Of a stretch of DNA of 64,000 nucleotides, positions 776-50,887 are shown in pieces. The notes beneath the pieces were generated by a model, which saw only the letters and a list, made by a program, of their open reading frames with translations, was not told the origin of the DNA and ran no database searches. Position numbers and translations under genes: made by a program. Origin of the DNA: a virus; IMG/VR virus record IMGVR_UViG_3300028827_000100, positions 1 to 64,000 of that record. One strand, 5' to 3'. Position 1 is the stretch's first letter. Every line of letters starts with the position of its first letter.

Positions 776-1942
776 GTGAAGAAGGTGAGAAAGATATTAA
801 AGAGAAACAGAAGCAATGTTAATGTGATAGAGTTCGGTGACTGTCGTGAAATCCTGAAGCGATGGATTGACGAAGGGGTACAAGTTCATACTTGTGTAAC
901 ATCTCCACCTTACTACGGGTTAAGAGATTACGGCGTGGATGGACAGATAGGTATGGAAGAAACACCCGAAGAATATGTTGCTAACTTGGTTGAAATATTT
1001 CGTCTTGTTCGAAAGGTGTTGCGTGACGATGGGACGTTGTGGTTGAATTTGGGGGATAGTTATGCCTCCAATTTGTATATGAGAAATGCACATAAATACA
1101 AAGACAGAAAAGATGTTAGGGGTGGGGAGTATAAAATTAAAGCAAAAGATTTGATGGGTATCCCGTGGCGAGTAGCCTTCGCACTGCAAGCCGATGGCTG
1201 GTACTTGAGACAAGATATAATCTGGCACAAGCCAAATCCGATGCCAGAGGCTGTAGCTGATAGATGTACAAAGGCGCATGAATATATATTTCTGTTGAGT
1301 AAATCCAAGAAATATTATTATGACCAACTGGCTACACTGGAACCAGCTATTAGCGGAATTAAATCCCCTGGAAAGTCAAGAACAGATAGTTACCACAAAT
1401 TAATTTTACCGGATGGCACACCCCCGTTTCAGCAAGAAGTCAAATCTTGGGGAAGTATTGATGGTAATCGAAACAAACATTCTGTTTGGACTGTTACTCT
1501 AACCCCATACAAAGAGGCTCATTTTGCGACGTATCCACCGTCTTTGATAGAGCCGTGCATTCTTGCCGGAACATCCGAAAAAGGGTGTTGTCCGGTTTGT
1601 GGTTCTCCGTGGGAGCGCAAAATTAAAAGGAGAAAAACAGGTTCTGTCAAGCCAAGAACTTTTGGTAAATCTGGGAACAAAGACAGGACAGATATTGGAT
1701 GGGTATATGAAGGTTTGATTACAACAACCGTTGGTTGGAGACCTACTTGCAGTTGTAATGCGGGAGACCCCGTACCATGCATTGTTCTTGACCCATTTAT
1801 GGGGAGTGGTACAACAGCGGCGGTGGCTGTAAAGCATAATCGAAATTATATAGGTTGCGAACTGAACAAAGAATATAAAAAGTTACAAGATGAAAGAATT
1901 AAGTTGGCGAAAATCGACAAATATGGTTTTTTTTGGTTTTAA
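776..1942 (+). CDS. DNA methyltransferase (N4-cytosine/N6-adenine type)
   Basis: A 388-residue AdoMet-dependent DNA amino-methyltransferase. The catalytic motif IV is SPPYYG (about residues 43-48), near the N-terminus. The AdoMet-binding motif I, LDPFMGSGTT, lies near residue 340, so the order is the beta-class arrangement. SPPY favours N4-cytosine methylation, though N6-adenine cannot be excluded. Between them sit two cysteine pairs (CCPVC near residue 265 and CSC...C near 325) that could hold zinc. GTG 776 is used because AGGAGG ends 10 nt upstream. No restriction endonuclease is adjacent, so it is probably an orphan enzyme protecting phage DNA from host restriction or marking it. A second, different methyltransferase is at 8209. 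Confidence 0.93.
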   Translation: MKKVRKILKRNRSNVNVIEFGDCREILKRWIDEGVQVHTCVTSPPYYGLRDYGVDGQIGMEETPEEYVANLVEIFRLVRKVLRDDGTLWLNLGDSYASNLYMRNAHKYKDRKDVRGGEYKIKAKDLMGIPWRVAFALQADGWYLRQDIIWHKPNPMPEAVADRCTKAHEYIFLLSKSKKYYYDQLATLEPAISGIKSPGKSRTDSYHKLILPDGTPPFQQEVKSWGSIDGNRNKHSVWTVTLTPYKEAHFATYPPSLIEPCILAGTSEKGCCPVCGSPWERKIKRRKTGSVKPRTFGKSGNKDRTDIGWVYEGLITTTVGWRPTCSCNAGDPVPCIVLDPFMGSGTTAAVAVKHNRNYIGCELNKEYKKLQDERIKLAKIDKYGFFWF

Positions 1943-2968: not shown

Positions 2969-2998
2969 GTTTTATCCGGTATGAGAGGAGGAAAAAAA

Positions 2999-3862
2999 AT
3001 GTTTGAAGTGATTGAAAAACTGAATAAGGATTTGAAGGAAGCGGCAAAGAGACTTGAAGGGAGGGAATGCAGGTATCTCGTTGATGCATATTACATGATT
3101 CAAGAGTATAGAAAGTCTCTTGCAAATCAAATCAGGATGTCCGGCGATGAACCTAACGCCCTGATTGGCTGGATGTTTGAGCAGGCAAAGGTTGTTGAGA
3201 ACAACATCAAAAGAGCGTTAGATGTTTACACTGACGAAAATCCTGTTGGCGTCTGGATGAAATCAATCAAAGGCATTGGCCCTGTTCTTGCGGCAGGATT
3301 ACTTGCTCATATAGACATAGAGAAAGCACCTACTGTTGGGCACATCTGGTCATTTGCCGGACTTGACCCCACGAAGAAGTGGGGGAAGGGGCAGAAGAGA
3401 CCGTGGAATGCACGGTTGAAAACTTTATGCTGGAAGATAGGAGATTGTTTTGTTAAGGTCTCAAATCGCCCTGATGATTTGTATGGTAAGCTGTACAAGG
3501 AGAGAAAAGAATATGAAATCAGCAAAAACTTGAGAGGGGAATATGCAGAGCAGGCGGCAGAAATTTTGAGAACAAAAAATATAGGTCGTGACACGGAAGC
3601 GTACAAATATTATGTTCAGGGGCTTCTGCCGCCGGGCCATATAGACATGAGGGCAAGAAGATATGCTGTTAAACAGTTCCTTGCTGATTTACACTATGTA
3701 TGGTATAGATACCATTTTAAGAAGGAGCCGCCAAAACCGTATCCTATAGCTATACTTGGCCATGCTCATGAGAGGGAAAAGCCATTGTTTAGAACGATTG
3801 TTCCGGCAAAGCGAGCCATAGAAAAGGATAGTACCCGGAATAGGGAGCGAAAAAGTATATAG
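2999..3862 (+). CDS. Orphan IS110-like protein (C-terminal Tnp/HhH part only)
   Basis: A 287-residue protein. ATG 2999 is used because AGGAGG lies just upstream and inside the longer frame from 2981. Residues 88-107 form a helix-hairpin-helix (IKGIGPVLAAGLL). It is followed by AGLDP at 120-124 and a basic stretch GKGQKRPWNARLKTL, the arrangement of the C-terminal domain of IS110/IS116/IS902 recombinases (Pfam Transposase_20). The usual N-terminal DEDD RuvC-like domain is absent: residues 1-85 are helical. No Ser stands where the catalytic Ser of the Tnp domain is normally found after GLDP; TKKWGKG is there instead. A further helical tail (150-245) is not typical of IS110. No IS ends are seen. 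The repeat array at 3775-4054 starts within the last codons. Probably a domesticated nucleic-acid-binding protein; recombinase activity looks unlikely. Confidence 0.85.
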   Translation: MFEVIEKLNKDLKEAAKRLEGRECRYLVDAYYMIQEYRKSLANQIRMSGDEPNALIGWMFEQAKVVENNIKRALDVYTDENPVGVWMKSIKGIGPVLAAGLLAHIDIEKAPTVGHIWSFAGLDPTKKWGKGQKRPWNARLKTLCWKIGDCFVKVSNRPDDLYGKLYKERKEYEISKNLRGEYAEQAAEILRTKNIGRDTEAYKYYVQGLLPPGHIDMRARRYAVKQFLADLHYVWYRYHFKKEPPKPYPIAILGHAHEREKPLFRTIVPAKRAIEKDSTRNRERKSI

Positions 3863-4054
3863 CCATAAGGATGGATAGCACCAACTTGGTTGAGTGAGCC
3901 TTATGAATTGCGGATGGGTTTATGCCATGTGAGTAGAGTGAGCCATCGAAAAAGAGCGAGTCATGATTAGTGAGAGTACCAAAAAAGTTAGAACGGGTCA
4001 TATCCATTGAGAGTACCACAACACCCGTGCGAATTATGTGACGAGAGTGCACCA
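3775..4054 (+). repeat. Degenerate 18/36-nt repeat array downstream of the IS110-like gene
   Basis: 10-nt cores recur with mostly 8-nt variable segments between them. Cores start at 3775, 3809, 3827, 3845, 3856, 3874, 3892, 3918, 3936, 3954, 3972, 3991, 4009, 4027 and 4045. Two types tend to alternate. Type A ends in GCCA/GTCA (AAGCGAGCCA, TATATAGCCA, GAGCGAGTCA, GAACGGGTCA). Type B resembles GAGAGTACCA (GATAGTACCC, GATAGCACCA, GAGAGTACCA twice, GAGTGCACCA). From 3936 to 4054 the spacing is 18, 18, 19, 18, 18, 18. Segments after type A cores all begin with T. The array overlaps the 3' end of the IS110-like gene by about 90 bp and leaves 3863-4089 without a gene. It is not a CRISPR: the units are too short and degenerate. 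It may be a transcribed RNA, perhaps guide-like, or a binding array for the adjacent protein. Confidence 0.7.
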
Positions 4055-4089
4055 AAATTCAAATTAAAACGAAAGGGGGTGATGATTGC

Positions 4090-4416
4090 ATGAAAGTAGG
4101 TGATACTGGCAATGTTAACGTGGAGAATCTTAAGGTTGAGGATGGTGCTACAAAAATGAATATAGTCGGCGGGTTTGGGATTGTGCATGATTATCTTTCT
4201 GAATTGAGTGCTGTAATTGATACTCTTGAGACAAGACTCAAACCTGTAACAGGGAAGATGTCCCTAAAGCCATGCGATGAAGAAAAGAAGATTAGCGGTG
4301 TCAGTTTTGTGGGGCATTTAGAATCCGAGGTTGGCGTAAATTTACGGGAGACGATTGCGCACGTACAGGAGGCAACTGAAAGATTGCATAATATAATTAT
4401 GAATCTTGAAATTTAA
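4090..4416 (+). CDS. Hypothetical protein downstream of the repeat array
   Basis: A 108-residue protein starting at ATG 4090 with a strong GGGGGTGATG ribosome-binding site in the gap after the repeat array. The N-terminus is Gly/Val/Asp-rich and the C-terminal half looks helical (SEVGVNLRETIAHVQEATER). No known family recognised. Two hairpins follow at once, so it probably closes a transcription unit that includes the IS110-like gene and array. It could be functionally linked to them, but that is only positional inference. Confidence 0.75.
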   Translation: MKVGDTGNVNVENLKVEDGATKMNIVGGFGIVHDYLSELSAVIDTLETRLKPVTGKMSLKPCDEEKKISGVSFVGHLESEVGVNLRETIAHVQEATERLHNIIMNLEI

Positions 4417-4419
4417 GTT

Positions 4420-4493
4420 CCCGCCATTAGCGGCGTGGCGGGCGAATACCTCCTTCTGATTTCGGGGTCGCATTTTGCGACCCCACTTTTTTT
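4420..4493 (+). terminator. Tandem hairpins, the second a rho-independent terminator
   Basis: The first hairpin is CCCGCCA (4420-4426) / TGGCGGG (4436-4442) with a 9-nt loop and no T tract. The second is GGGGTCGC (4464-4471) / GCGACCCC (4477-4484) with loop ATTTT, followed by ACTTTTTTT to 4493, a canonical terminator. It separates the 439-4416 unit from the genes beginning at 4510. Confidence 0.85.
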
Positions 4494-6807: not shown

Positions 6808-7053
6808 ATGAACTTTCATGATTTTTTGGAAAAGTTTGATTATGGTGAAATATATGAGGATGAGACCGGGGCGTATGTGAAATTGCTTTCCCCGGATGAG
6901 GAGGGTATTGACAGGATTGAAGTGTGGAAATTGAGTCCAAATGGATTAACGGGTGATGGCTATTCCCCCTACCACGGGGAGTATTATGACGGGTTGATAA
7001 ATCCCGGCTTTGACGATGACAGCGAAAAGGCAAAATTAATTGAGGTAGTGTAA
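6808..7053 (+). CDS. Acidic hypothetical protein
   Basis: An 81-residue acidic protein (about 20 Asp/Glu), ATG 6808 after TAGGAGGT. Contains YSPYHGEYYDGLINPGFDDD. No family recognised. Its stop overlaps the next ATG (TAATG), so it is translationally coupled to the RuvC-like gene. Confidence 0.75.
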   Translation: MNFHDFLEKFDYGEIYEDETGAYVKLLSPDEEGIDRIEVWKLSPNGLTGDGYSPYHGEYYDGLINPGFDDDSEKAKLIEVV

Positions 7054-7529
7054 TGAAATATTACATAGGGATTGATAACGGGGTAACGGGGCATGTTGCT
7101 GTCGTAAGTGAAGATGGCAGGGTGTTGCATTATGCCCCAGTCCCGACAAAAAAAGAGCTTTCGTATACGAAGAAAGTACAACATATAACTCGAATTGACA
7201 ATCCGGCCTTGCGAAAGCTCTTGAGAAAATACAAGATGAAAGGGTTGACAAAAGTGGTCATAGAAAGGCCGCTTGTTACCCCGAAAAGATTTAAGGCGAG
7301 CCTTTCTGCAATGAGGGCACTTGAGTCTGTTCTTGTTGCTATAGAACATCTCAAACTTCCTTATCAGTACATAGACAGTAAGGAGTGGCAAAAAGCACTC
7401 CTGCCCGACAAGGTGAAAGAGACCAAAAAGGCGGCAGTGCAGGTTGCAGGGAGACTTTTCCCTGACGTCGATACCAAAGACGCCGATGCCTTGCTGATTG
7501 CAGAATACGCACGCAGAAACAATCTTTAG
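7053..7529 (+). CDS. RuvC-like Holliday junction resolvase
   Basis: A 158-residue protein of the RuvC/RNase H-like superfamily, resembling the short phage RuvC resolvases. Motifs: IGIDNG (Asp8), VVIERP (Glu71) and DTKDADALLIAEYA (Asp143/Asp145), the acidic set that binds two Mg2+ and cleaves branched DNA. In phages it resolves recombination and replication junctions before packaging. Length fits the family (about 150-190). It ends 3 nt before the tRNA gene. Confidence 0.9.
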   Translation: MKYYIGIDNGVTGHVAVVSEDGRVLHYAPVPTKKELSYTKKVQHITRIDNPALRKLLRKYKMKGLTKVVIERPLVTPKRFKASLSAMRALESVLVAIEHLKLPYQYIDSKEWQKALLPDKVKETKKAAVQVAGRLFPDVDTKDADALLIAEYARRNNL

Positions 7530-7532
7530 GGT

Positions 7533-7616
7533 GTCGGGGTGGTGGAATTGGCAGACACGGAGGTCTCAAAAATCTCTGGCTTGTCCGTGCGGGTTCGAGT
7601 CCCGCTCCCGACACCA
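7533..7616 (+). tRNA. tRNA-Leu(CAA)
   Basis: Acceptor GTCGGGG (7533-7539) pairs with TCCCGAC. The D-arm is TGGTGGAATTGGCAGAC. The anticodon stem GAGGT/ATCTC closes the loop CTCAAAA, giving anticodon CAA, which reads TTG. A short class II variable arm is present. The T-arm GCGGG-TTCGAGT-CCCGC is perfect. Discriminator A and an encoded CCA end it. TTG is frequent in the phage genes, so the tRNA probably supports late translation or replaces a degraded host tRNA. Confidence 0.93.
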
Positions 7617-7996: not shown

Positions 7997-8198
7997 CGTA
8001 ATGGGAATTTTACTTGGCAGTGTGATGTTTGTGTTTTTTATAGAGAACATTTCGGACTTTCTGTCTTACAGGGTTGAGTCGAGAAGGTGCGGCCCTTATT
8101 TGAAAAGAGAATATGTTGCAATATCAAAGAAGCATATGTGGAATGCGGTACTTTATCTGCTACTCGCAATTGCCGTGTTTGTTGCGGTTTTTGTTTAG
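7983..8198 (+). CDS. Small membrane protein
   Basis: 71 residues from ATG 7983 (GGGGGAGGTG upstream). Two hydrophobic segments: about residues 5-22 (VMGILLGSVMFVFF) and the last 18 (AVLYLLLAIAVFVAVFV), with a basic link (SRRCGPYLKRE). Probably an inner-membrane protein. No family recognised; superinfection-exclusion and host-takeover roles are both possible but unsupported. Confidence 0.75.
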   Translation: MNGFDVMGILLGSVMFVFFIENISDFLSYRVESRRCGPYLKREYVAISKKHMWNAVLYLLLAIAVFVAVFV

Positions 8199-8208
8199 GA
8201 GGAAAAGG

Positions 8209-9600
8209 GTGAGTGTTGAATTGTTTACTACTCAAGATTCGATAGCATGGCTTTTGCTTGGCAAATGTGAAAGGGCTATGGGGGAAATGCCAGACAACTA
8301 TGTGGATACTATTATTACTGACCCGCCTTATGGCCTTCAGTTTATGGGGAAGAAGTGGGATTATGATGTGCCAAGTGTAGAGACGTTTCAGGAAATGTTG
8401 AGGGTGGCAAAGCCCGGCGCAACATTGCTTTGCTTTGCGGGCGCAAGAACTCAACATCGGATGGCAGTGAATATTGAAGATGCGGGATGGGAACTGAAGG
8501 ATTGCATTATGTGGATTTACGGATCAGGATTCCCGAAGGCGACAGATATAAGTAAACAGATTGACAGGAAATTTGGGGTTAAGGGGGAAGTTATGGACAA
8601 GAGAAAGGGTTGTAGTCGAAAGCGTATTTATAATGTGGCGGTATATTCTGGATCATCAGGCAGGGAATATGAGATAGTTGCTCCTACCACCCCCGAAGCA
8701 AAACTCTGGAACGGCTGGAAATCACATGGGCTCAAACCTGCCTATGAACCTATTCTCGTAGCAATGAAACCAAACGAAGGTAGCTATGCACAGAACGCAT
8801 TGAAATGGGGTGTGAGCGGGTTGAATATAGATGGTGCGAGGATAGAATTAAAGGGTATTGAAGAACATACTACGGAAGCAAAAAGCGGTCTTGGTAAAAG
8901 GATATATGGAAAATATAAAAATAAACCAACCATAACATCTGATTTGCCGAGATATAACATTAAAGGTCGCTACCCCGCCAATATCATCCTTGACGAAGAA
9001 GCCGCAAGAATGCTGGATGAACAAATAGGCGACCAAGGCGGTGCATCACGATTCTTCTATGTTGCCAAGGCATCAAGGGCAGAAAGAAACATGGGGCTTG
9101 AAGACTTACCCGCCAAAGAGAGGGCCAATATCAATAAAATGATGGGAAGTGATGACAACAGTATGCTTACAGGTAGTGGAAATAAGCGGAATAATAAATT
9201 GCAAAACTTCCACCCCACTGTCAAACCTCTGGAGTTAATAGTATATTTGTGCAACCTTACCAAAACTCCATTTGGCGGGGTTGTACTTGATCCATATATG
9301 GGAAGTGGCACAACCGGAATTGCGTGCCTCATTACAGGTAGGGATTTTATTGGTATTGAAATGAAGCCTGATTATTATAAAGTGGCTTGTGAGAGAAGTA
9401 AGTATGTGAGTAGAAAGTTGCTCAAAATCAAACATAATCCTTTTGAACTCATATCTAATCTGGATGATTCAAATGAACTTGAAAGGTTGATTAAGAATTA
9501 TTCAAGGTTTGTGTGTGGGCACAAACTTAACAATCCAAAATTGAATAAAAGTAAGGGGGGTGAAAAAAACAGGCAAGGTGATACACTTTTTAAATATTGA
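8209..9600 (+). CDS. DNA methyltransferase (beta class, DPPY)
   Basis: About 463 residues from GTG 8209, chosen for AGGAGG at 8197-8202. Motif IV TDPPYG lies at residues 37-42. Motif I, LDPYMGSGTTG, lies near residue 360, followed by FIGIEMKPDYYKVA. The long central part includes a GGASRFFYVAKASRAERN segment seen in phage site-specific methyltransferases. DPPY fits N6-adenine modification, N4-cytosine being less likely. Organisation differs from the enzyme at 776 (SPPY), so the phage probably modifies two sequences. The C-terminal tail after residue 400 is Lys/Asn-rich and may be a recognition or accessory region. No restriction partner is seen. Confidence 0.93.
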   Translation: MSVELFTTQDSIAWLLLGKCERAMGEMPDNYVDTIITDPPYGLQFMGKKWDYDVPSVETFQEMLRVAKPGATLLCFAGARTQHRMAVNIEDAGWELKDCIMWIYGSGFPKATDISKQIDRKFGVKGEVMDKRKGCSRKRIYNVAVYSGSSGREYEIVAPTTPEAKLWNGWKSHGLKPAYEPILVAMKPNEGSYAQNALKWGVSGLNIDGARIELKGIEEHTTEAKSGLGKRIYGKYKNKPTITSDLPRYNIKGRYPANIILDEEAARMLDEQIGDQGGASRFFYVAKASRAERNMGLEDLPAKERANINKMMGSDDNSMLTGSGNKRNNKLQNFHPTVKPLELIVYLCNLTKTPFGGVVLDPYMGSGTTGIACLITGRDFIGIEMKPDYYKVACERSKYVSRKLLKIKHNPFELISNLDDSNELERLIKNYSRFVCGHKLNNPKLNKSKGGEKNRQGDTLFKY

Positions 9601-41374: not shown

Positions 41375-42196
41375 ATGGCAAAGGTTAGAAAAATTAAAAA
41401 GGTTTCGGGTCGGAAAAACAGGATTGGGAAAAAGGTTGACAGGAAGAAGGTCTACAGCCACAGAAACAGGGAGCAGAATCTTCCGGTTGTTTCGGATGTA
41501 TCAGAATTTTCCTTTCTTGATGACGGTCAGCACAGTTGTAGAATTTGCAGAACTCCAGCCGTGAGATTTTTCGTTGTTGAATGCATGGCAAGGGGTTTAT
41601 CTCTTTACAAAACGAGAGAACTTCTCAAAAAACATTTTAATTTTGGAATCACTCCAGCAACGATACGTGAGCATATTGAAAAGCATGATACACAGTACAC
41701 AAAGTGGTTCGGAATGGTTCAGTACAAATTTCCGACCGAAGAAGAAAGAAAGAGATACGAAGCGGCGTTTTTGAGTAGAGTGTCCATTGTAACAGAAATG
41801 TGGGACAAATACATGGTGATTTCAAAACTTTTTAGCATGGTGGTTGGTGATGCAAATAAGATAAATGAAAACGCCGTATTCAATGTTGATGATGTGGCAA
41901 AACTTTCCAACGTAATGAAGTCGTATCTGGAATCAATACTGAAACTCCAGAAGGAAAGGGATATATATGTAGAGGTTGCGAAGGTTGTGCTGTTTACAAT
42001 GGCTAACAACCTCGTTGACAGGTTGTCATCACTTGTAATGGATTTGCCGCAGGAAAGAAGGGATGCGATAGGCAAGGCAATTACGGAAGAGGTAAGGGCG
42101 GCGTTAGACCATGCAAAAAATCTTGGCAGGGAAAAAATAGAGAAGCTCATGGAGAAGGTGCAGGATGAATACAACAGGCTTGTCAAAAAGACATGA
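41375..42196 (+). CDS. terS: Small terminase subunit-like protein
   Basis: 273 residues from ATG 41375 (AAAGGAGG upstream). Basic N-terminus (VRKIKKVSGRKNRIGKK), then HSCRICR and a helical segment GLSLYKTRELLKKHFNFGIT...ATIREHIEKHD resembling a DNA-binding helix-turn-helix, followed by long helices for oligomerisation. It directly precedes and overlaps the large terminase. It would recognise phage DNA for packaging. Assigned by context plus the HTH-like segment. Confidence 0.75.
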   Translation: MAKVRKIKKVSGRKNRIGKKVDRKKVYSHRNREQNLPVVSDVSEFSFLDDGQHSCRICRTPAVRFFVVECMARGLSLYKTRELLKKHFNFGITPATIREHIEKHDTQYTKWFGMVQYKFPTEEERKRYEAAFLSRVSIVTEMWDKYMVISKLFSMVVGDANKINENAVFNVDDVAKLSNVMKSYLESILKLQKERDIYVEVAKVVLFTMANNLVDRLSSLVMDLPQERRDAIGKAITEEVRAALDHAKNLGREKIEKLMEKVQDEYNRLVKKT

Positions 42197-44087
42197 TAAT
42201 ATCCTGAAGATGAAACCTGTTGGCATTGACAGTTTTTGCCGTTCCATTTCACACAACAGTAAAATTGTTATTGAACTTCCGTCAGATACTCCGGTTGAAG
42301 CGGACGACGACCTGTTTCTGGAAGGGCTTGCTGTCAAGGTCGCCGGAGAAAAAGAAAAGAAAGTTGTAAGTGAAGAATATGGGAATATTATAGATTATGC
42401 GGTTAGAGCACTTGGTTTGAGAACGATATACAAGTATAAGCGGCAATATCAGGTGTTGAGAGACTTTTTCATGTTGCGATGTCCCGTCTGCAACGGAAAA
42501 GAAATGGATGTATGGAATATGACTGAAGAAGAAATTGAGAGAGAAGTGCTCATGCGACTTGACATGAAGTCTGAAAAACTTGTCTGTGACGGGTGCGGGC
42601 ACACCGTTGACAGGATGAAGTACAGAGACCTTGTTCTGTGTGTTGGCATGAGAAGCGGAAAAACTGTTACAGCGGCGATAATTGCCGCATATATATTTTA
42701 TCTGATTTTTGTTGTACCAAAACTTGACAGAAGGTTTCAGCTCATACCAGACCAGAGCTTGAGGGTGTCCATGGTAAGTACATCTTCGTCACAGACTGAA
42801 AAGACGGTTTGGTCTGCATTTACTTCATTGCTTGAGAACGCAATAGACGAAGATATAAAAAGAATTGTCAGGAACAATTCCAACTATGTTGAGATAGATA
42901 CGAATACAAAAGAGTGGAAAGTTGAAAACATAGAGTTTATGTCACTACACTCAAACTCCGGTTCACTTGCAGGTGGTACTGGCATACTTGCCGTGCTTGA
43001 GGAGTTTTCGAGATTTAACCTTGGCACTTCAAAGAGGAGTGCGGATGAAGTGAGAAACGTTTTGGACAGATCGCTTGCAACAACGAGGTCGGTTGCCAAA
43101 ACGTATCTCGAAGACCTCTTTACATTAATGGTAGTCATAAGTTCACCCTACTATGTTGTCGACGATCCTACAATGATGCTGTTTTATGATGTGGGCGAAT
43201 CGGGCGTTATCAATGTGAAATATGGCAGGCATATCAAAGGTGAACTGCTTGCATACCATTATCCAACTTGGGAATTTAATCCATTTATAGACAGAGGGGC
43301 ATCTTTCATAGAGAGGGCGTATTCTCTGGATGCGGCGGCGGCAGAAAGGGACTATGGGGCCAATCCTGTATCGTCGGCTGGTGGATTGTTTGAAAATGTT
43401 GAAAGCATTTACGAGAAAATTTTTCTGGATACAGACGACGGAATTATTTTTAATGTATATCCAAAACGAGAAGGAGACCTTGTAGCATTAACGGCTAAAG
43501 TTGAAAGCATAAAGAATTGTTTTGCCAAAGAGTATTATGTTCACATAGACCTTGGCTTGAATCACGACCTTCTGACTATGGTGTTTGCGAGGCCTGAAGA
43601 TGGGAATGTTTATGTTGACGGCATGCTTGTTATAAAGTCTGAACACAACATAGAGGCATACATTGATACACCGATTGAAATAATAGAAAGTATTAAAGAC
43701 AGGGTGAAAATAAATTATGTATCTTACGACAGATGGCAATCTGTTCCCGGCATACAGCGTTTGAAAAGGATGATGATTCCGGCTGGACTTTTCAGTGTCC
43801 GTGATGATGCGATAGTCACCTTGAAGTTTATGATGATGGCCGGAAAGGTTTACATACTTGACAACGACAAAAATGCAACGACAATTTTGAAACACGAAAT
43901 GAGAAGCGTGAGAAGGGTTAATGGAAAGTTAACTCATACAGATTTGCTTGTGTCTGTTTCCGGTGCTGTGAAGAACGCATTTACAGGTGTTACAAAGAAA
44001 ATGTATACCAAGGGCAGGAATGTCGTTTCCCATGTTACAGATTACAAAAACTTCATGCCGAGAACTGCAAAAATAGGCAGGCTTTAG
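42165..44087 (+). CDS. terL: Large terminase subunit (ATPase/nuclease)
   Basis: 640 residues. Walker A GMRSGKT (about 161-167), Walker B ILAVLEEF, then the C-terminal RNase H-like nuclease with YVHIDLGLNHD and VSYDRWQS. Just before Walker A there is a four-Cys zinc ribbon: CPVC (from 106) and CDGC (from 141), unusual at this position. It translocates DNA into the prohead and cuts it. Start ATG 42165 overlaps terS by 32 nt with GGTGCAGG upstream. Confidence 0.93.
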   Translation: MNTTGLSKRHDNILKMKPVGIDSFCRSISHNSKIVIELPSDTPVEADDDLFLEGLAVKVAGEKEKKVVSEEYGNIIDYAVRALGLRTIYKYKRQYQVLRDFFMLRCPVCNGKEMDVWNMTEEEIEREVLMRLDMKSEKLVCDGCGHTVDRMKYRDLVLCVGMRSGKTVTAAIIAAYIFYLIFVVPKLDRRFQLIPDQSLRVSMVSTSSSQTEKTVWSAFTSLLENAIDEDIKRIVRNNSNYVEIDTNTKEWKVENIEFMSLHSNSGSLAGGTGILAVLEEFSRFNLGTSKRSADEVRNVLDRSLATTRSVAKTYLEDLFTLMVVISSPYYVVDDPTMMLFYDVGESGVINVKYGRHIKGELLAYHYPTWEFNPFIDRGASFIERAYSLDAAAAERDYGANPVSSAGGLFENVESIYEKIFLDTDDGIIFNVYPKREGDLVALTAKVESIKNCFAKEYYVHIDLGLNHDLLTMVFARPEDGNVYVDGMLVIKSEHNIEAYIDTPIEIIESIKDRVKINYVSYDRWQSVPGIQRLKRMMIPAGLFSVRDDAIVTLKFMMMAGKVYILDNDKNATTILKHEMRSVRRVNGKLTHTDLLVSVSGAVKNAFTGVTKKMYTKGRNVVSHVTDYKNFMPRTAKIGRL

Positions 44088-44096
44088 GGGGTGTAG

Positions 44097-45944
44097 ATGC
44101 CAACTAAAAAGACAACCGGAAAAACAAAAAAGAAGACAGCGTCGTATAACGATGTGATTCCAAGAATAATTGGTGGTGCTGGTAGTGATGGTGGAATGAA
44201 GAAGAAAGCCAATCCAACTGTTGGAGGGCCGGGAACGGTTGGTGGCATTTCCGGTGGAATAGAGTCCGGCATGTCTTTTACAAGACCTGTCAGGTATGAG
44301 CCGGAGTTTGCTTCACCTGAAAGATGGTCTTTTCCAAAAAACATCAAAAAGATAAATGACTACTTCAGAATATTTTACAAGTTCGATCCGCTCGTTGGTG
44401 CTGTGATAGATATATACACAGAAATGCCATTGTCGGATTATGAGATAAGCGGCGACGGGGTTGACGGTGAAATCAAGGAAAGACTTGAAGAAATGTTTGA
44501 AGTGATTAATTTTCTGTCCTTGATGAAAAATATAGGGACAGAGTTTCTTGTTGTAGGTGAGGCGATACCACATCTCTTTTACAATAAAGACCTTGGATAT
44601 TGGGATGGGTATAGTCTTCACAGGCAGGAAGATATTGAAGTGGTGGATACTCACTTAATGGGTATAGAGCCGGTTCTTATTCTTCGACCGGACAAGGAAG
44701 AGGTTGCAAAGCTGAAAAAAATAAAAACGGCATATGAAAAATTCGGAATTGAGCAGGGTGAAACAAATCTTTACATGGAAGAGCTTTTGACAAAAAAGGA
44801 AGTTGCACTTGAAAACCTGAATGTGACGTTTATACCAAGAAGATTGCACGAGTATGAATTGCGTGGAACGAGTATATTGACGAGATTGTGGAGGGCGTTC
44901 ATGTACGAAGACGCTCTTGCAAATGCGAGTATACAGACCGCATACAGGCACGCATCTCCTGTCAAGGTTGTTAAAATGGGAGACCTTGCGAGCGGATACA
45001 TACCCACGGAAGAACAGATTAATGAATTGACAAGAGTTCTTGCGATGAGTGAGACAGACCCGCAGGCATGGGTTTTTGCTCCCCCCGGAACAACATTTGA
45101 AGCATGGGGTACAAATGACAGGATAACAGGGTTGAAATCTGATTATGAGATTATAGAAAATATGAAGTTGACAGCCCTTGGTGTAAGCAGAGATTTTATT
45201 ACGGGGGCGGCGAATTATGCATCGGCACAGGCCGGATTGCAGGTTTTGCTTTCAAGATTGCTTGCATTTAGAACTTTGATAGAACAGGCGTTTGTTTATC
45301 CAAAATTCATTTTTCCGATTGTTAAGGTGAACAAGTGGATTAGAAGGTCTGCCGCCGATTATGAACACAACGTGAGAACTACAAAAAATACGAATTATGT
45401 TATGCCGAAAATAGTGTGGAGCAAGAAGTTGAAAGTTACAGTTGATGCTGAACTGCTTGAGGCGTATTCAAGTCTTGTAAGAGATTTTGACGTTAAGTTG
45501 AGTGAGAGAACTCTTACCGAAGTAGTTGGTATTAACTGGTCAGATGAACAGAGGCGAATTATGGAAGAGAAAATGATAAAGAGTATTATGGAAAAAGGAG
45601 AGATGGAAGAAGGCGAAACGCCTGTTGGCGGTCTACCGGGTGGAGGAGGCAGAGGATTTGGTGGCTTTACCGGAGAGCCGAAAGCCCTTGGTGAGGGCGG
45701 TGGCCCTGAAGGTGGTGTTGAAGAAATTGCGCCAGAACCGAATCTGGAAGAAAGTCCCGGCGAAGTCAGAATGCACGCTTCCGCAAAAAGACAGCTTGGA
45801 GATGTATTTCTTTCCGGTGTTTACAAACCTAACGGTAGAGCAATGCGTGTTCTTGAAGACATATCTGTTGACGAACTCAAGGACAAGATAGGAAAATTGT
45901 ACAGGAACGGGAAGAAGGGTAAGGTAAAAAAAAATAAAAGGTAA
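44097..45944 (+). CDS. Portal protein
   Basis: 615 residues, located directly after the terminase. After a Lys/Gly-rich N-terminal tail, the core is YYKFDPLVG-type: INDYFRIFYKFDPLVGAVID, then DYEISGDG, VVGEAIPHLFYNKDLGYWDG and LRGTSILTRLWRAFMYEDAL. This matches large-myophage portal proteins (dodecameric ring through which DNA passes). The C-terminal 100 residues are Gly/Glu-rich. ATG 44097 after AGGGGGTGT. Confidence 0.88.
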   Translation: MPTKKTTGKTKKKTASYNDVIPRIIGGAGSDGGMKKKANPTVGGPGTVGGISGGIESGMSFTRPVRYEPEFASPERWSFPKNIKKINDYFRIFYKFDPLVGAVIDIYTEMPLSDYEISGDGVDGEIKERLEEMFEVINFLSLMKNIGTEFLVVGEAIPHLFYNKDLGYWDGYSLHRQEDIEVVDTHLMGIEPVLILRPDKEEVAKLKKIKTAYEKFGIEQGETNLYMEELLTKKEVALENLNVTFIPRRLHEYELRGTSILTRLWRAFMYEDALANASIQTAYRHASPVKVVKMGDLASGYIPTEEQINELTRVLAMSETDPQAWVFAPPGTTFEAWGTNDRITGLKSDYEIIENMKLTALGVSRDFITGAANYASAQAGLQVLLSRLLAFRTLIEQAFVYPKFIFPIVKVNKWIRRSAADYEHNVRTTKNTNYVMPKIVWSKKLKVTVDAELLEAYSSLVRDFDVKLSERTLTEVVGINWSDEQRRIMEEKMIKSIMEKGEMEEGETPVGGLPGGGGRGFGGFTGEPKALGEGGGPEGGVEEIAPEPNLEESPGEVRMHASAKRQLGDVFLSGVYKPNGRAMRVLEDISVDELKDKIGKLYRNGKKGKVKKNKR

Positions 45945-45956
45945 AGGAGGCAGGAA

Positions 45957-46322
45957 ATGGAAAAGGTGAATCCTTTTAAGGAGAGGCAGACGGTAGATGA
46001 ATCAAGGGCGAATATTCTCTATGGCAAACTGTCAGTGGCCTTTATGAAAAAGCCCGGTGGTTTGTTGTTTAAACTGTTTGACCTTGGAACATTGTCTTTT
46101 CAGGAAGACAACAGGCTCAAGGTGTACAAGGACAGGGTCGGTGATTCTGTGAGAAAGTTTTTGGCAAATATAAAAATTGGCAATGACCCGGTAAAGTGTT
46201 ATGAGGCATTGAGGTATGAATTGTTCAAGACGGCAAGGCTTGGTATAGGGGATGACAGCAAACACAATCTCTTTTGTGAGGCGGTTGACGAAATATTAAT
46301 GTCGATAGAAGAAGAGTTTTAA
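45957..46322 (+). CDS. Hypothetical head-module protein
   Basis: 121 residues, helical. ATG 45957 after AAAGGAGGC. Basic patch KVYKDRVGDSVRKFLANIK. It lies between portal and protease-like genes, so a head-assembly role is likely but unproven. No family recognised. Confidence 0.7.
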   Translation: MEKVNPFKERQTVDESRANILYGKLSVAFMKKPGGLLFKLFDLGTLSFQEDNRLKVYKDRVGDSVRKFLANIKIGNDPVKCYEALRYELFKTARLGIGDDSKHNLFCEAVDEILMSIEEEF

Positions 46323-46331
46323 GGAGGCCGT

Positions 46332-46478
46332 ATGTTTAAAAAAAATCAGAAGGTTACAGATATAAAAAGGGTTGGGGAAGCTGAAGTTGATAAGAGAATA
46401 TCAGAACTTGAAAAAAAGATAAGAAAGGTGATGAGAAACGGCAAAGCTCCACGAGACGTTAAAGTGGTGAAAAAATAA
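46332..46478 (+). CDS. 48-residue basic coiled-coil protein
   Basis: ATG 46332 (AAGGAGG 5 nt upstream) to TAA 46476-46478. Highly charged helix (EVDKRISELEKKIRKVMRNG). Fits an uninterrupted coding gap between head genes. No family recognised. Confidence 0.65.
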   Translation: MFKKNQKVTDIKRVGEAEVDKRISELEKKIRKVMRNGKAPRDVKVVKK

Positions 46479-46497
46479 CTTGTGGCGTTTTTTCTTC

Positions 46498-46533
46498 TTT
46501 ATTCTTTACGAGGGGGAAAGTGCGCCTTTTTTC
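46498..46533 (+). promoter_or_regulatory. Second copy of the 36-nt intergenic element
   Basis: 30 of 36 bases match 12461-12496, with the shared core TTACGAGGGG followed by GTGCGCCT and a T-rich end. This copy lacks the downstream half that lets the first copy fold into the long stem. GGCG (46483-46486) / CGCC (46523-46526) could close a weaker loop. It stands 20 nt before the start of the protease-like gene. Confidence 0.55.
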
Positions 46534-46552
46534 ATTTTTATGGAGGAGTGTC

Positions 46553-47272
46553 ATGCTGATTAAAACTGCAAAAGTCACAATAATTTCTGCAAGCAGGGAT
46601 ATGAGAAGCGGGGCGTTTTCATTCATGAAACGGATTGCAAACACGCCAGCCTCTTTTACAGAGGCAAAGTTTGCAGAACTTCTCGATGTGGTACACAAGC
46701 CGTATAATATATCCAACAATCCAGACGACTATATGTTTCTTGTTGCGAGAGCTTTGACGGCAGATGTACCAAACGAGAACAAAGACGCTTTCGGAGAGTA
46801 TGAGTTGTTGTCTGTCAAGGAAGCTGGAGTGTTCACATACGAGACGTTCAGGATGACACCCCTTCTTGAAGAACATGACGATTCGGACATACCCACAGTT
46901 GCAGGTGGTTTCAATATTGATGCTTATTATGACGATACTAACAGTGATGATAAATTTGTCGCTTTGCTTATAGCACTTGACACTTCAAAGAAACCTCATA
47001 TAGCGTCCAAAATTCTCAATGGTGACAAAGTGGATTTTTCAATGGGTTGTATCTGCATGAGAACAAGGTGCTCAAAGTGTGGCAATATTGCATATGATGA
47101 GAAAGATTTTTGTAATCATGTAAAAAACAAGTTTGCCTTTGGAAAGGACGTTTTTGAGTGGTGCGAAGATGTAACATACAGAGAACTTTCCCATGTTGCA
47201 GAGCCAGCCGATCCTAATGCAAGCAGTATACAGGCTTGTTATAACGATGGCGGCAAAATAATATGTAAATGA
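46553..47272 (+). CDS. Prohead protease-like / head maturation protein
   Basis: 239 residues from ATG 46553 (GGAGGAG upstream). It resembles large-myophage head proteins: an N-terminal strand/helix region, LLEEHDDSDIPTVAGGFNID, then a strongly conserved Cys patch DFSMGCICMRTRCSKCGNIA...CNHVKNKF, which may bind zinc, and a C-terminal HVAEPADPNASS. The S-x-G and H-x-x-E features could be protease residues, but I could not place a catalytic triad. Position between portal and scaffold supports the role. Confidence 0.7.
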   Translation: MLIKTAKVTIISASRDMRSGAFSFMKRIANTPASFTEAKFAELLDVVHKPYNISNNPDDYMFLVARALTADVPNENKDAFGEYELLSVKEAGVFTYETFRMTPLLEEHDDSDIPTVAGGFNIDAYYDDTNSDDKFVALLIALDTSKKPHIASKILNGDKVDFSMGCICMRTRCSKCGNIAYDEKDFCNHVKNKFAFGKDVFEWCEDVTYRELSHVAEPADPNASSIQACYNDGGKIICK

Positions 47273-47286
47273 CAAGGGGGATAAAA

Positions 47287-48885
47287 ATGGAAAAAGAGCT
47301 TCTGTGGAAGATAGCATCCGCAAACAACAGACTTGCAGTTTTGAAGTTTGCAAGGGCCATCGTGTATGCAGACAGGAATGAAAAGGAAATAGACGAAACG
47401 CTCGTAAAGAAGATTGCAGATTCAGTTGACGCCGATGACATGGAAAAGTATGTGGATGAGTTTGTTTGCAAGGTTGCTGGAATCGGTGATGGCGATTGCA
47501 ACATGGCATCGGTTGAAATTGCAGATGATATGATACGAGAGGCTGTTAAAGGTATAAAGGAAGTGGAATCATTTTATCTTGGTGAATGGAGAACTTATCC
47601 GGTATTTACAATTGAGAGCATGAGAAGGGCATACGTAAACAACAGAGTTGTTGTTGCCAGCAATGAAGAAGAAATGCTCGACAGGTCTTTCAGGATAATT
47701 TCAAACATACTTGATGACGAAGAGGAGGCTTACAATCTCGTTAAGGCTGGAATTGGAGAGTTTTTGGCTGGTAGCAAAAAGAAGAAGGCTTTGAATGTTT
47801 CAAAGGGTGATGTTGTATGTTTGAATGAAAATCCCGATGTGTGTGGAAAGGTTGTGGACGGCCCCCTCAAGTTCAGGGGGAATATGTATATAATCAGGGA
47901 CAACTCCGGTAAAGAGTTGTCTCTTTATCCGAATGAATTTCATCTGAAGTCTATAGGTGTGGCCGCAAGTGTCAATCCATATCTCAATCTCAAAAAGGTT
48001 GTTGCGGATGCTAAAACTATATACGTTTCAGACAACGAAATAGCAGAGGTTGATGAAGGTGGCAGTGTTGTTGTAAGGGACAAACAGTCGGGCGAACAGA
48101 AGAGAGAAGAAAAATATGAGTCTGCACAGGAAGCTGTTAATCAGGTTACACAGAGCGGGTTTAAGCCTGTTTCTTACTACACCGGGAGTAAGCCTGATAT
48201 AGAGGTGTCAATAATACGTGCAAATAAGGCAGTCATATACGATTTGCGAAACGGGGATAAAAAGAGAAAAATACCTGTTTTTGCAAACAACGAATTTGAC
48301 CTCATACAGGCCATATATGACGAGACGGAAAAGTTGTGCAATTGTGGACTCAAGGCTTACAGGGTTATTGAAGCCGCTGTTAAAAAGTGGTCTGCTGAAA
48401 ATGGAGAGTCGGATGGATATGATCCATTACAGGACACAATAGACCCGATAACCGCCAATCAGGACGTTGTTCTTGATACCGCATGGATGATTTATGATGC
48501 CGGAAAGGAAGTGACGCCTAAAAACATTTTTGCTAAGGTTAAAGATTTTATAGGTATGAGTGACAGCGATTACAATTCTGAAATAGCAGAATCGATAAAA
48601 ATAGTTCTTGCGGATAATGGCTGGCAATCCCTGAAGCAGAAAGAGAAACAGGAGCAGAATGTTGAAAAGGTTGCTGCCGGATGGGAAAAGTTGCCGAAGG
48701 GGTGGACGGAAGAGTCTCTTAAAAAATTCTGGAACTCGTTGACTGGAAACGTGAAACACAAAACGAAAAAGTGTATAAGGAAGTTTGAAGGTATAGTTGA
48801 TGATCCCGGAGCTTTTTGTGCTTCCTTGAGAGATAGGGTAGAGGGGACTACAAAATGGAGGGGAAGTTCAACAGAAAACTCATAG
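47287..48885 (+). CDS. Head-module protein with C-terminal GWTEESLKKFW/TTKWRG domain
   Basis: 532 residues from ATG 47287 (CAAGGGGG upstream). N-terminal 170 helical and acidic; about 170-230 a strand module (SKGDVVCLNENPDVCGKVVD). C-terminal 55 residues: LPKGWTEESLKKFWNSLTG, KCIRKFEGIVDDPGAFCASL, GTTKWRG. This last pattern is common at the ends of large phage proteins (Cys-Ile near the start, FCA, then TTxWR). Role unknown. Confidence 0.75.
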   Translation: MEKELLWKIASANNRLAVLKFARAIVYADRNEKEIDETLVKKIADSVDADDMEKYVDEFVCKVAGIGDGDCNMASVEIADDMIREAVKGIKEVESFYLGEWRTYPVFTIESMRRAYVNNRVVVASNEEEMLDRSFRIISNILDDEEEAYNLVKAGIGEFLAGSKKKKALNVSKGDVVCLNENPDVCGKVVDGPLKFRGNMYIIRDNSGKELSLYPNEFHLKSIGVAASVNPYLNLKKVVADAKTIYVSDNEIAEVDEGGSVVVRDKQSGEQKREEKYESAQEAVNQVTQSGFKPVSYYTGSKPDIEVSIIRANKAVIYDLRNGDKKRKIPVFANNEFDLIQAIYDETEKLCNCGLKAYRVIEAAVKKWSAENGESDGYDPLQDTIDPITANQDVVLDTAWMIYDAGKEVTPKNIFAKVKDFIGMSDSDYNSEIAESIKIVLADNGWQSLKQKEKQEQNVEKVAAGWEKLPKGWTEESLKKFWNSLTGNVKHKTKKCIRKFEGIVDDPGAFCASLRDRVEGTTKWRGSSTENS

Positions 48886-48896
48886 GAGGAGAAACT

Positions 48897-49103
48897 ATGC
48901 CTAACAATTCCAAAGAGGTGGCAGATTTTATAGCAAGACTTGGAATGATGATAGCGGCGGGTACTGATTTGTCAACTTTGCAGTACCATACGTTGCAGGC
49001 TGTTAATCAGATGAACATGACTGGTATAGAAAAAATGCTTTTTATAAGCATGGTAAACAAGACACTCAAAAGCATGGGTGTCAGCGGAGAAATAAAGGTA
49101 TAG
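48897..49103 (+). CDS. Small hypothetical protein
   Basis: 68 residues from ATG 48897 (ATAGGAGGAG upstream). Helical: VADFIARLGMMIAAGTDLST, then TGIEKMLFISMVNKTLKSMG. No family recognised. The following 103 bp (49104-49206) hold no gene or clear signal. Confidence 0.65.
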   Translation: MPNNSKEVADFIARLGMMIAAGTDLSTLQYHTLQAVNQMNMTGIEKMLFISMVNKTLKSMGVSGEIKV

Positions 49104-49206
49104 CAGGTTGTAAAGGCTGTTTGGTGCAAGGTGTGGTGAGTGGTATTTGGAGTAAGGGAAGTGGCAAAAGGCGACGGGTAATATATCAAAATCAAGGAGG
49201 AGTTGC

Positions 49207-50175
49207 ATGGATAGGCGACAGAAGATTAAAAGACTTGCAAGAATGTTGAGAATGCGTGCCGAAGCCAAAAGGAAGGGTGTGGCAGCATCTCCTGCAAGAA
49301 GAAAGGCTGCTCTGAAAAATGCAATTGCGAGAAAGAGAAAGTCGGTTGCAGGAAAAGCTCCGGCCATTACCGGTAGCAAAAAACTTGCGGTTCTGAAGAA
49401 GATAAACGAGCTGAAGAAGGAACTCCGCAAACGCAAACTTGCAAGAGCTGGCTCCACTTCCGCATTGAGTAAACGCAGGTTGAGAAAGCCGTCAGCACGT
49501 TCTCGTATTCTTTCCACGAACTTGAGGTCGAGGCTTCGCAGGAGAAGGGCTATAGAGGAGTCCAACAGCATCCTTGAGAGGGCAGATGACAACATCAACG
49601 AGGACACGATGAATAAGAATTATGGTATGCCCGCTCCGAAGCCAACGTTTGTTACGGGGCCACAGTTGAAGAAGCTCAAGGATGAACAGCTGAAGGATGC
49701 GCCTCCCACCCTTTTGGCAGAAGATGTCAGAGAATCTTTTAAGAGGGCAATTAAGATTGCTTACAAGAAGTTTGCAAAAAATCTTGAAGCAATCGGTCAT
49801 CCCCTCAAGGCATCTCTTTGGGAACACTTTGCCAACACTGGCAGGTTGAATCCCTCTGTCATAACGGCGGCTATTGACTCGGCATTTGAGGAGGCTGGAG
49901 ACGAGTTTCTCGAAATTCTCTTCAAGAGAGCGGAAGAAATTGCAGACTATTCACCCGAAACGATTGCTGAAATGGAAAGAGAGATTGAGTTGACGTGTCA
50001 GGTTACACCTACTGTTGAGCCGCCTGAAGAAGAGGAGGAGTTTGAAGAAGAAGAGAAAGAGGCTGAAGAAGTTGAGGAGAGACTCGTTGAAGGAAGTCTC
50101 AAAATACCAAGGAGTGCTACCAGCAAGAAAGCATCACTGCTTTCTATGGCAGTTCCATCTTACAACATCGAATAG
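49207..50175 (+). CDS. Scaffold-like bipolar-charge protein
   Basis: 322 residues. Residues 1-120 are almost all Lys/Arg/Ala (SKRRLRKPSARSRILSTNLR), the middle is helical, and the C-terminal 60 residues are Glu-rich (PPEEEEEFEEEEKEAEEVEE). The bipolar charge and the place just before decoration and major capsid genes fit a scaffold or internal core protein. ATG 49207 after AAGGAGGAG. Confidence 0.7.
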   Translation: MDRRQKIKRLARMLRMRAEAKRKGVAASPARRKAALKNAIARKRKSVAGKAPAITGSKKLAVLKKINELKKELRKRKLARAGSTSALSKRRLRKPSARSRILSTNLRSRLRRRRAIEESNSILERADDNINEDTMNKNYGMPAPKPTFVTGPQLKKLKDEQLKDAPPTLLAEDVRESFKRAIKIAYKKFAKNLEAIGHPLKASLWEHFANTGRLNPSVITAAIDSAFEEAGDEFLEILFKRAEEIADYSPETIAEMEREIELTCQVTPTVEPPEEEEEFEEEEKEAEEVEERLVEGSLKIPRSATSKKASLLSMAVPSYNIE

Positions 50176-50187
50176 GAGGATGTCACG

Positions 50188-50874
50188 ATGATAGACCTTA
50201 CAAGAAGCGTTTTTACTGTCAACCTTGGCATCCGTGACGTTGATCCGAACGCTCAAATTCTTCAGGGGCAGATAGTGGCCCTTGATACGGAAGGAAGGAT
50301 TACGCTTGCGGATGGAGTTGATGCTTATGGAGTTGCGAAATGGAACAAGGCGGATACTTTCTATTCACCTGTTGTGGATGAGTCCATACAGTTGAATGGA
50401 ACGACCCCTTCCAACCTTGACCATGCAAATATCAAGTCTGGTTCTGTCCGTGTTACAAGCTCGGATGGCTCTACTGTCTATGCCGAAACTACGGACTACA
50501 CGGTTAACTACACCAATGGTCAGATAACAAGGGTTGGTGCGGGAAATATCCCGGATGGAGCAACGGTTCTCGTCACTTACTCGTATCAGATGACGGAGTA
50601 CGAGTTGAAGGTTATTCGTGGTACGAATTACCAGAACGCAACGGACGACACACTCGGTAGTGGTAAGATGACTGTAGCACAGGATTTCTTTGAAATCTAC
50701 ACCGACCAGTACGACACTTCGCAGGGTTATACACCGGGTGATGTTTTGTATGTGGGTTCAGGTGCTACTGCCGGGCTTTTTACCACCGACAATGCCAGTG
50801 GTAAGGCTTACGGCATAGTGGTAAAAGCTCCTTCGGCATCCGATCCGTTGCTTGGAGTGCAAGTAGGAAGGTAG
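50188..50874 (+). CDS. Capsid decoration-like protein
   Basis: 228 residues, beta-rich, ATG 50188 after ATAGGAGG. Strands such as YAETTDYTVNYTNGQITRVG and GATVLVTYSYQMTEYEL. Located directly before the major capsid gene, as head decoration or vertex proteins often are. No family match that I can name. Codon use here is more G/C-rich at third positions, like the neighbouring capsid gene, consistent with high expression. Confidence 0.65.
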   Translation: MIDLTRSVFTVNLGIRDVDPNAQILQGQIVALDTEGRITLADGVDAYGVAKWNKADTFYSPVVDESIQLNGTTPSNLDHANIKSGSVRVTSSDGSTVYAETTDYTVNYTNGQITRVGAGNIPDGATVLVTYSYQMTEYELKVIRGTNYQNATDDTLGSGKMTVAQDFFEIYTDQYDTSQGYTPGDVLYVGSGATAGLFTTDNASGKAYGIVVKAPSASDPLLGVQVGR

Positions 50875-50887
50875 GAGGTAAGAGAAT

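What the first reader, a model, noticed from the sequence alone, without database searches (positions are those of the whole stretch)
3775..4054. Array alternates two core types with constant 8-nt variable segments
Read by eye: cores of type A (end GCCA/GTCA) and type B (like GAGAGTACCA) alternate in about 36-nt dimers, most clearly at 3809/3827, 3856/3874, 3954/3972, 3991/4009 and 4027/4045. All segments after type A begin with T; those after type B do not. Steps from 3936 to 4045 are 18, 18, 19, 18, 18, 18. The regular spacing with variable fill is what a multi-guide or multi-site array would look like. The cores do not pair with each other, so simple hairpins do not explain them.
Basis: seen in the sequence. 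Interest (0 to 1): 0.85.

Follow-up and report, generated by a model that had tools for sequence, protein, structure and literature searches.

The report
Phage TIGR guide-RNA array beside TasA
A tailed phage carries a small RNA-binding protein gene followed by a string of paired 8-letter guide segments, a further member of the recently described TIGR-Tas family of RNA-guided DNA-binding systems, whose natural targets are still unknown.

Summary
The array is real and is a known kind of system: a dual-repeat TIGR array (Tandem Interspaced Guide RNA) directly behind a nuclease-less Tas gene (TasA), in a 105,878-base tailed-phage record. Repeat models trained only on relatives find it in the window with score 79.9; 20 random 64-kb sequences reach at most 16.6. 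Of 152 loci checked, 146 carry such arrays beside the tas gene. Their consensus is edge GAGCGAGCCA, loop GAGAGNACCA and 8-nt segments. The type-A core matches the edge repeat of the experimentally studied Salicola phage CGphi29 array. The protein's best sequence and fold matches are TasH and TasR, ahead of IS110-type recombinases, and it has no nuclease domain. Edge positions 3:8 and 4:7 and loop position 3:8 covary as base pairs, as in the published TasR structure. The window array parses as 8-nt segments from 3809 to 4054, with one 9-nt segment and two repeats split by inserts. No convincing target was found in the phage's own genome, near related tas genes, or in 2.35 Mb of one prophage's host. 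Novelty lies in details: split repeats, and fast whole-unit turnover of arrays between near-identical tas genes.

The parts
2981..3862 (+). tasA: solo Nop-domain Tas protein, ORF of 293 aa; the likely true start is ATG 2999, behind GAGGAGG (287 aa). The last ~18 codons run into the array.
   Evidence: Pfam Transposase_20 1.4e-6, phrog_4285 1.3e-52; PDB TasR 9e-15 and TasH 6e-10 by phmmer, 7.5e-33 and 1.2e-46 by profile; AlphaFold2 pLDDT 88.7, VIA-align Z 19.9 to TasH and 18.7 to TasR; start site
3809..4062 (+). TIGR array: edge and loop repeats of about 10 nt with 8-nt spacers
   Evidence: profile-chain score 79.9 for the best chain (3936-4054) against null maximum 16.6; full parse
3809..3818 (+). 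edge repeat 1, AAGCGAGCCA; spacer TAGAAAAG 3819-3826
   Evidence: edge score 12.6; parse
3827..3836 (+). loop repeat 1, GATAGTACCC; spacer GGAATAGG 3837-3844
   Evidence: loop score 8.4
3845..3865 (+). edge repeat 2 split by an 11-nt insert, GAGCG-AAAAAGTATAT-AGCCA; spacer TAAGGATG 3866-3873. The tas stop codon 3860-3862 lies at its second half.
   Evidence: sequence; similar mid-repeat splits in relatives such as L073 and L103
3874..3883 (+). loop repeat 2, GATAGCACCA; spacer ACTTGGTT 3884-3891
   Evidence: loop score 12.8
3892..3901 (+). edge repeat 3, GAGTGAGCCT; spacer TATGAATT 3902-3909
   Evidence: edge score 11.1
3910..3927 (+). probable lengthened loop repeat 3, GCGGATGGGTTTATGCCA (8 nt longer); spacer TGTGAGTA 3928-3935
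   Evidence: position between 8-nt spacers and the GCCA end; weak, by inference
3936..3945 (+). repeat GAGTGAGCCA (edge score 15.6, loop score 12.1); spacer TCGAAAAA 3946-3953
3954..3963 (+). edge repeat GAGCGAGTCA; spacer TGATTAGT 3964-3971
   Evidence: edge score 14.9
3972..3981 (+). loop repeat GAGAGTACCA; spacer AAAAAGTTA 3982-3990 (9 nt)
   Evidence: loop score 16.2
3991..4000 (+). edge repeat GAACGGGTCA, with the A3-T8 variant of the 3:8 pair; spacer TATCCATT 4001-4008
   Evidence: edge score 8.0; covariation
4009..4018 (+). loop repeat GAGAGTACCA; spacer CAACACCC 4019-4026
   Evidence: loop score 16.2
4027..4036 (+). degenerate edge repeat GTGCGAATTA; spacer TGTGACGA 4037-4044
   Evidence: in register in the chain, low score 1.6
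4045..4054 (+). last loop repeat GAGTGCACCA; following AAATTCAA 4055-4062 has no closing edge repeat
   Evidence: loop score 13.7
4090..4416 (+). downstream 108-aa ORF of unknown family, possibly in the same transcript; not shown to belong to the system
   Evidence: no Pfam or PHROG match
4464..4484 (+). intrinsic-terminator-like hairpin (9 pairs, 7 of them G-C, then ACTTTTTTTA), candidate end of the tas-array transcript
   Evidence: consensus scan only

Best explanation
A TIGR-TasA system. The tas gene makes a small, nuclease-less Nop-domain protein; the array behind it is transcribed on the same strand as a precursor RNA. By analogy with the tested FpTasA, TaTasR and SpTasH systems, the precursor is cut in the middle of each edge repeat into about 36-nt tigRNAs (half edge, spacer A, loop, spacer B, half edge), each bound by a TasA dimer through the box C/D-like repeat ends. 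Spacer A pairs with one DNA strand and spacer B with the other at adjacent places (target = spacer B, 0-2 nt, reverse complement of spacer A). Without a nuclease, TasA would bind and bend the target, most likely blocking transcription or replication of a competitor element or host gene. Shown here: array, partner gene, their conservation, the covarying repeat pairs and the fold. Inferred from the family: transcription, processing and DNA targeting. Speculative: the biological outcome.
For: Array statistics against null. 146 of 152 loci have such arrays, 201 of 202 arrays on the tas strand, usually starting within -6 to +14 nt of the tas stop codon. E-N-L spacing is 8 nt in 817 of 853 pairs. 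The type-A core matches the edge repeat of the Salicola CGphi29 array, whose SpTasH is experimentally characterised (PMC12045711). Edge 3:8 (GC 139, AT 15, TA 7 of 164 arrays) and 4:7 (CG 111, TA 40), and loop 3:8 (GC 141, TA 9) are the top covarying pairs, matching the box C/D pair and the extra edge pair of the TasR structure. Sequence profile: TasH 1.2e-46 and TasR 7.5e-33, against IS621 1.1e-5. Fold: Z 19.9 and 18.7, against 13.8 for IS621.
Against: The window array has irregularities: two split repeats, one ambiguous edge/loop assignment, a weak edge at 4027 and no closing edge repeat, so it could be partly decayed. No RNA data were available. No convincing target was found.
Confidence: 0.93

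Rival explanations
1. An IS110-type RNA-guided transposase with a bridge/seek RNA next to it; the repeats would be remnants of the bridge RNA.
For: Pfam names the domain Transposase_20 and PHROGs calls the family 'transposase'; IS621 is a weaker sequence and fold relative.
Against: No DEDD catalytic domain in 293 aa; best relatives are TasH and TasR. Bridge RNAs are single two-loop units, not arrays of 36-nt units (PMC12045711); 146 of 152 loci have arrays.
Confidence: 0.02
2. The repeats are protein-coding: an 18-nt period equals 6 codons, and long reverse-strand ORFs cross some arrays (for example L001).
For: 18 nt is a multiple of 3; the window has an 88-aa reverse ORF and L001 a 287-aa one.
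Against: No frame is consistently open: over 125 arrays the first 200 nt are stop-free in 2-14 on forward frames and 36-52 on each reverse frame, with 31-34 on reverse frames after spacer shuffling. 19-nt steps and inserts break the frame. Repeat columns covary as base pairs.
Confidence: 0.02
3. A DNA-level multi-site array: operator, origin or iteron sites bound by a phage protein, with the variable 8-mers as passive spacers.
For: Short conserved cores at a regular 18-nt step next to a gene for a nucleic-acid-binding protein; no RNA data exist for this locus.
Against: Arrays lie on one strand with tas in 201 of 202 cases; covariation fits RNA pairing inside repeats; a homologous phage system makes 36-nt RNAs from such arrays (PMC12045711).
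Confidence: 0.02
4. A decayed, non-functional TIGR relic.
For: Split repeats, a degenerate edge at 4027, overlap of the array with the 3' end of the tas frame, no closing edge repeat.
Against: The tas frame is intact and keeps the conserved residues. The clean part of the array scores 11.4 per core, above 62% of relatives' arrays. Splits and CDS overlap also occur in relatives.
Confidence: 0.15

Closest known systems
SpTIGR-TasH of Salicola phage CGphi29 (NC_020844)
   Same: Edge repeat core GCGAGCCA, 8-nt spacers, 36-nt unit, array directly downstream of the tas gene, phage-encoded; homologous Nop domain (tblastn 3e-8; profile 1.2e-46).
   Different: SpTasH has an N-terminal HNH nuclease, the window protein has none; the SpTIGR loop repeat is AGACAACCA, here GAGAGTACCA.
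TIGR-TasA with a dual-repeat array (for example Flavonifractor plautii FpTIGR)
   Same: Solo Nop-domain effector with alternating edge and loop repeats.
   Different: FpTIGR has 9-nt spacers (18 nt of variable sequence in all, PMC12045711), here 8; FpTIGR sequences were not compared here.
TIGR-TasR (PDB 9mty)
   Same: Nop domain and coiled coil; repeats ending in CCA with a box C/D pair and an extra edge pair.
   Different: TasR has a RuvC nuclease domain; its repeats begin with UG, those here with GAG.
IS110-family recombinases (IS621, ISCro4) with bridge RNA
   Same: Shared RNA-binding domain and fold.
   Different: DEDD domain, mobility and a single bridge RNA; none of these was found here.
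CRISPR arrays
   Same: Repeats separated by variable spacers.
   Different: Two alternating ~10-nt repeats, 8-nt spacers, no cas genes found beside it, single Nop effector.

Membership tests
TIGR-Tas (dual-repeat type) | Nop-domain Tas protein encoded beside the array | tested here: met
   Sequence and fold matches to TasH and TasR; array starts in the last codons of the gene
TIGR-Tas (dual-repeat type) | Two distinct alternating repeats of 8-12 nt | tested here: met
   Edge and loop matrices from relatives chain through the window array; one ambiguous assignment at 3936/3954
TIGR-Tas (dual-repeat type) | Short spacers (9 nt usual, 8 nt in SpTIGR) giving a ~36-nt unit | tested here: met
   All window spacers 8 nt except one of 9; 817 of 853 relatives' spacers 8 nt
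TIGR-Tas (dual-repeat type) | Box C/D-like ends of edge and loop repeats that pair and covary, with an extra pair in the edge | tested here: met
   MI 0.63 (edge 3:8), 0.48 (edge 4:7), 0.26 (loop 3:8), the top pairs. Tested across relatives; some window repeats break a pair.
TIGR-Tas (dual-repeat type) | Array begins and ends with truncated edge repeats and a rho-independent terminator | tested here: inconclusive
   No closing edge repeat after 4054; nearest terminator-like hairpin at 4464-4484, behind a 108-aa ORF. The paper calls this typical, not universal.
TIGR-Tas (dual-repeat type) | Processing to 36-nt tigRNAs bound by Tas | not testable with these tools
   Needs small-RNA sequencing
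TIGR-Tas (dual-repeat type) | tigRNA-guided binding of both strands of a DNA target | not testable with these tools
   In-silico target searches negative or inconclusive
TasA subtype | No HNH or RuvC domain | tested here: met
   293 aa; the fold match to TasH begins at model residue 24, aligned to TasH residue 65 behind its N-terminal HNH part; no nuclease family in Pfam
IS110 family transposase | N-terminal DEDD catalytic domain | tested here: not met
   Pfam finds only Transposase_20 above its cut-off; the fold match to IS621 begins at its residue 125, behind its N-terminal part
CRISPR-Cas | One repeat type of 25-36 nt with cas genes | tested here: not met
   Two alternating ~10-nt repeats; neighbouring genes are a DNA methylase, a nucleotidase-like protein and unknowns

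The most novel reading that the evidence does not exclude
TIGR-TasA arrays are rewritten much faster than their tas gene by gain, loss and replacement of whole 36-nt dual-guide units in the interior of the array, with the end units often kept and no sign of addition at one end. That would be a guide-turnover mode unlike CRISPR and without adaptation genes, which would let phages retarget a nuclease-free DNA binder.
Probability: 0.4. Interest if true: 0.65.

Novelty: new member of a known kind. Interest (0 to 1): 0.42.

Why it matters
TIGR-Tas was described only in 2025; its natural targets, the job of nuclease-less TasA and how arrays gain spacers are stated open questions (PMC12045711). This locus adds a phage member of a large TasA subfamily with uniform 8-nt spacers. 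The comparison set assembled here (146 loci with arrays, about 1,690 dual-spacer units) makes array turnover and target searches directly testable.

Tried and rejected
(1) Autocorrelation alone: only modest support. (2) Tandem Repeats Finder and an exact 7-mer chain missed the window array because its cores vary. (3) Targets in the phage's own 105.9 kb: nothing with fewer than 3 mismatches of 16-17. (4) Targets within 10 kb of related tas genes: no exact hits, one-mismatch hits as in permuted pairs. (5) Cross-search of 1,686 units against 1.98 Mb non-redundant sequence: counts as in permuted controls; one-mismatch hits at gaps 0 and 1 (61 and 59) are slightly above the roughly 45-50 of controls, not convincing after many tests. 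(6) Halomonas sp. NO4 prophage array against 2.35 Mb of its host: one exact 16-bp match with a 1-bp gap, but spacer B occurs 915 times in that G+C-rich genome and 1% of shuffled pairs do as well, so inconclusive. (7) Rfam: no match. (8) Conserved neighbour gene: the largest neighbour family reaches 10 of 107 non-redundant loci, so the system looks self-contained. (9) Protein-coding reading of the array: rejected. (10) Alignment A1 was too diverse to scan with, so closer sets were used.

Full report
What was reported. The sequence shows this. Autocorrelation gives only modest support by itself (lag 18 over 3862-4056, z 4.3, corrected p 0.016), so an independent test was needed.

Relatives. The array begins in the last codons of a 293-aa gene (2981-3862; likely start ATG 2999 behind GAGGAGG) that Pfam and PHROGs call an IS110-type 'transposase'. 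Scans of viral and genome contigs gave about 145 loci with relatives of this protein. Reading the DNA after the stop codon of L001 (about 46% identity) shows a clean array GCGAGCCG-N8-GAGAGTGCCG and a second one upstream. L004 has the same design in different letters (TAATATATCA / AAAAGATTCA, 35-nt period).

Independent test. A pattern search in the relatives gave 853 edge-spacer-loop pairs in 110 loci, 817 with 8-nt spacers. Weight matrices from these, which do not include the window, were chained over the window: score 79.9 with seven cores at 3936-4054. The rest of the window reaches 15.0, the rest of the phage genome 15.3, and 20 random 64-kb sequences at most 16.6. Across 152 loci checked 146 have arrays; 201 of 202 arrays are on the tas strand, most starting within -6 to +14 nt of the tas stop codon, some upstream, 30 loci with both. 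In 2.35 Mb of a host genome the strict pattern occurs only in its own prophage array.

Parse of the window array. From 3809 to 4054 every variable segment is 8 nt except one of 9. Two repeats are interrupted: an edge repeat by 11 nt between its halves (3845-3865) and probably a loop repeat by 8 nt (3910-3927). Similar splits occur in relatives, mostly near the middle of the repeat. The elements 3936 and 3954 both look like edges, so one loop was lost or converted. The last edge (4027) is degenerate and no closing edge follows. Nine of 134 downstream arrays overlap the tas frame by about 10 nt or more, so the overlap here is unusual but not unique.

Identity. The 2025 TIGR-Tas paper (PMC12045711; [quoted passage not shown] TasA is the nuclease-less form. 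The Salicola phage CGphi29 system tested there (SpTasH) was found from the window protein by tblastn, and its array has the same edge core, GCGAGCCA. Profile search of solved structures gives TasH 1.2e-46, TasR 7.5e-33, IS621 1.1e-5. The AlphaFold2 model (pLDDT 88.7) matches TasH at Z 19.9 and TasR at Z 18.7, with IS621 at 13.8.

Pairing inside repeats. In 164 arrays the two strongest covarying column pairs of the edge repeat are 3:8 (G-C, A-T, T-A) and 4:7 (C-G, T-A); in the loop repeat only 3:8. The TasR structure has a box C/D pair in both repeats and an additional pair in the edge only. The comparative data thus recover the same pairs for TasA arrays. The window's GAACGGGTCA is an A-T example of the 3:8 pair.

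Mechanism. By analogy, the array is transcribed with or after tasA, cut in the middle of edge repeats to ~36-nt tigRNAs and loaded on a TasA dimer; the two spacers pair with opposite DNA strands. From the reported 8-nt 3' overhangs I deduced the target order spacer B, 0-2 nt, reverse complement of spacer A (inference). Without a nuclease the likely effect is blocking or bending DNA. Transcription, processing and targeting at this locus are not shown.

Targets. No site with fewer than 3 mismatches exists in the phage's own genome. No excess over permuted spacer pairs was seen near related tas genes or across 1.98 Mb of relatives' flanks. One prophage array (Halomonas) has one exact host match, not convincing given base composition. 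Targets remain unknown.

Array turnover. tas genes 93-98% identical can carry arrays sharing few or no spacers (L001/L089, L115/L118, L058/L060), while others share collinear blocks with whole units inserted or missing inside and end units kept (L030/L037 both ends, L022/L025 the last). Spacer differences in aligned units are mostly 0-1 or about 5, i.e. same or replaced. This is preliminary: few pairs were examined, and several of them share sequences.

Verdict. A real TIGR-TasA locus, a new member of a known kind. Confidence in the identity is high; guide activity, targets and biological role are open.

Noticed in passing
L030/L037, L022/L025, L035/L036, L001/L089, L115/L118: Arrays turn over faster than their tas genes: near-identical genes with few shared spacers, whole 36-nt units gained or lost inside the array, end units often kept.
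   Followed up: partly
L026:17517-18678 (minus strand): An array of 64 cores on the opposite strand with no second Tas protein found in the locus; possibly served in trans.
   Followed up: partly
L004:3459-3680: A TIGR-like array with A+T-rich repeats TAATATATCA / AAAAGATTCA and 35-nt period behind a 485-aa Tas relative; TAATATATCA fits the 3:8 and 4:7 pairing rule with new letters.
   Followed up: partly
L073, L103, L094, L080: Edge repeats split near the middle by inserts of 2-14 nt while neighbouring spacers stay 8 nt, as in the window at 3845-3865.
   Followed up: partly
L043:10807-12534 and 5 other loci: A ParB-like ORF directly behind tas in 6 loci, resembling the published TasParB association; judged from its first residues only.
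   Followed up: no
window 42165-52051: Terminase, portal and major head genes; the portal is 38% identical over 71% to Virus Rctr197k from a methane-oxidation enrichment culture, a hint to habitat.
   Followed up: partly
window 7533-7616: A tRNA-Leu gene (anticodon caa), just after a Holliday-junction-resolvase-like ORF at 7053-7529.
   Followed up: no
window 776-1942 and 8113-9600: ORF 776-1942 is an N6/N4-type DNA methylase; ORF 8113-9600 contains a DPPYG-type motif and looks like a second one (motif seen by eye).
   Followed up: no
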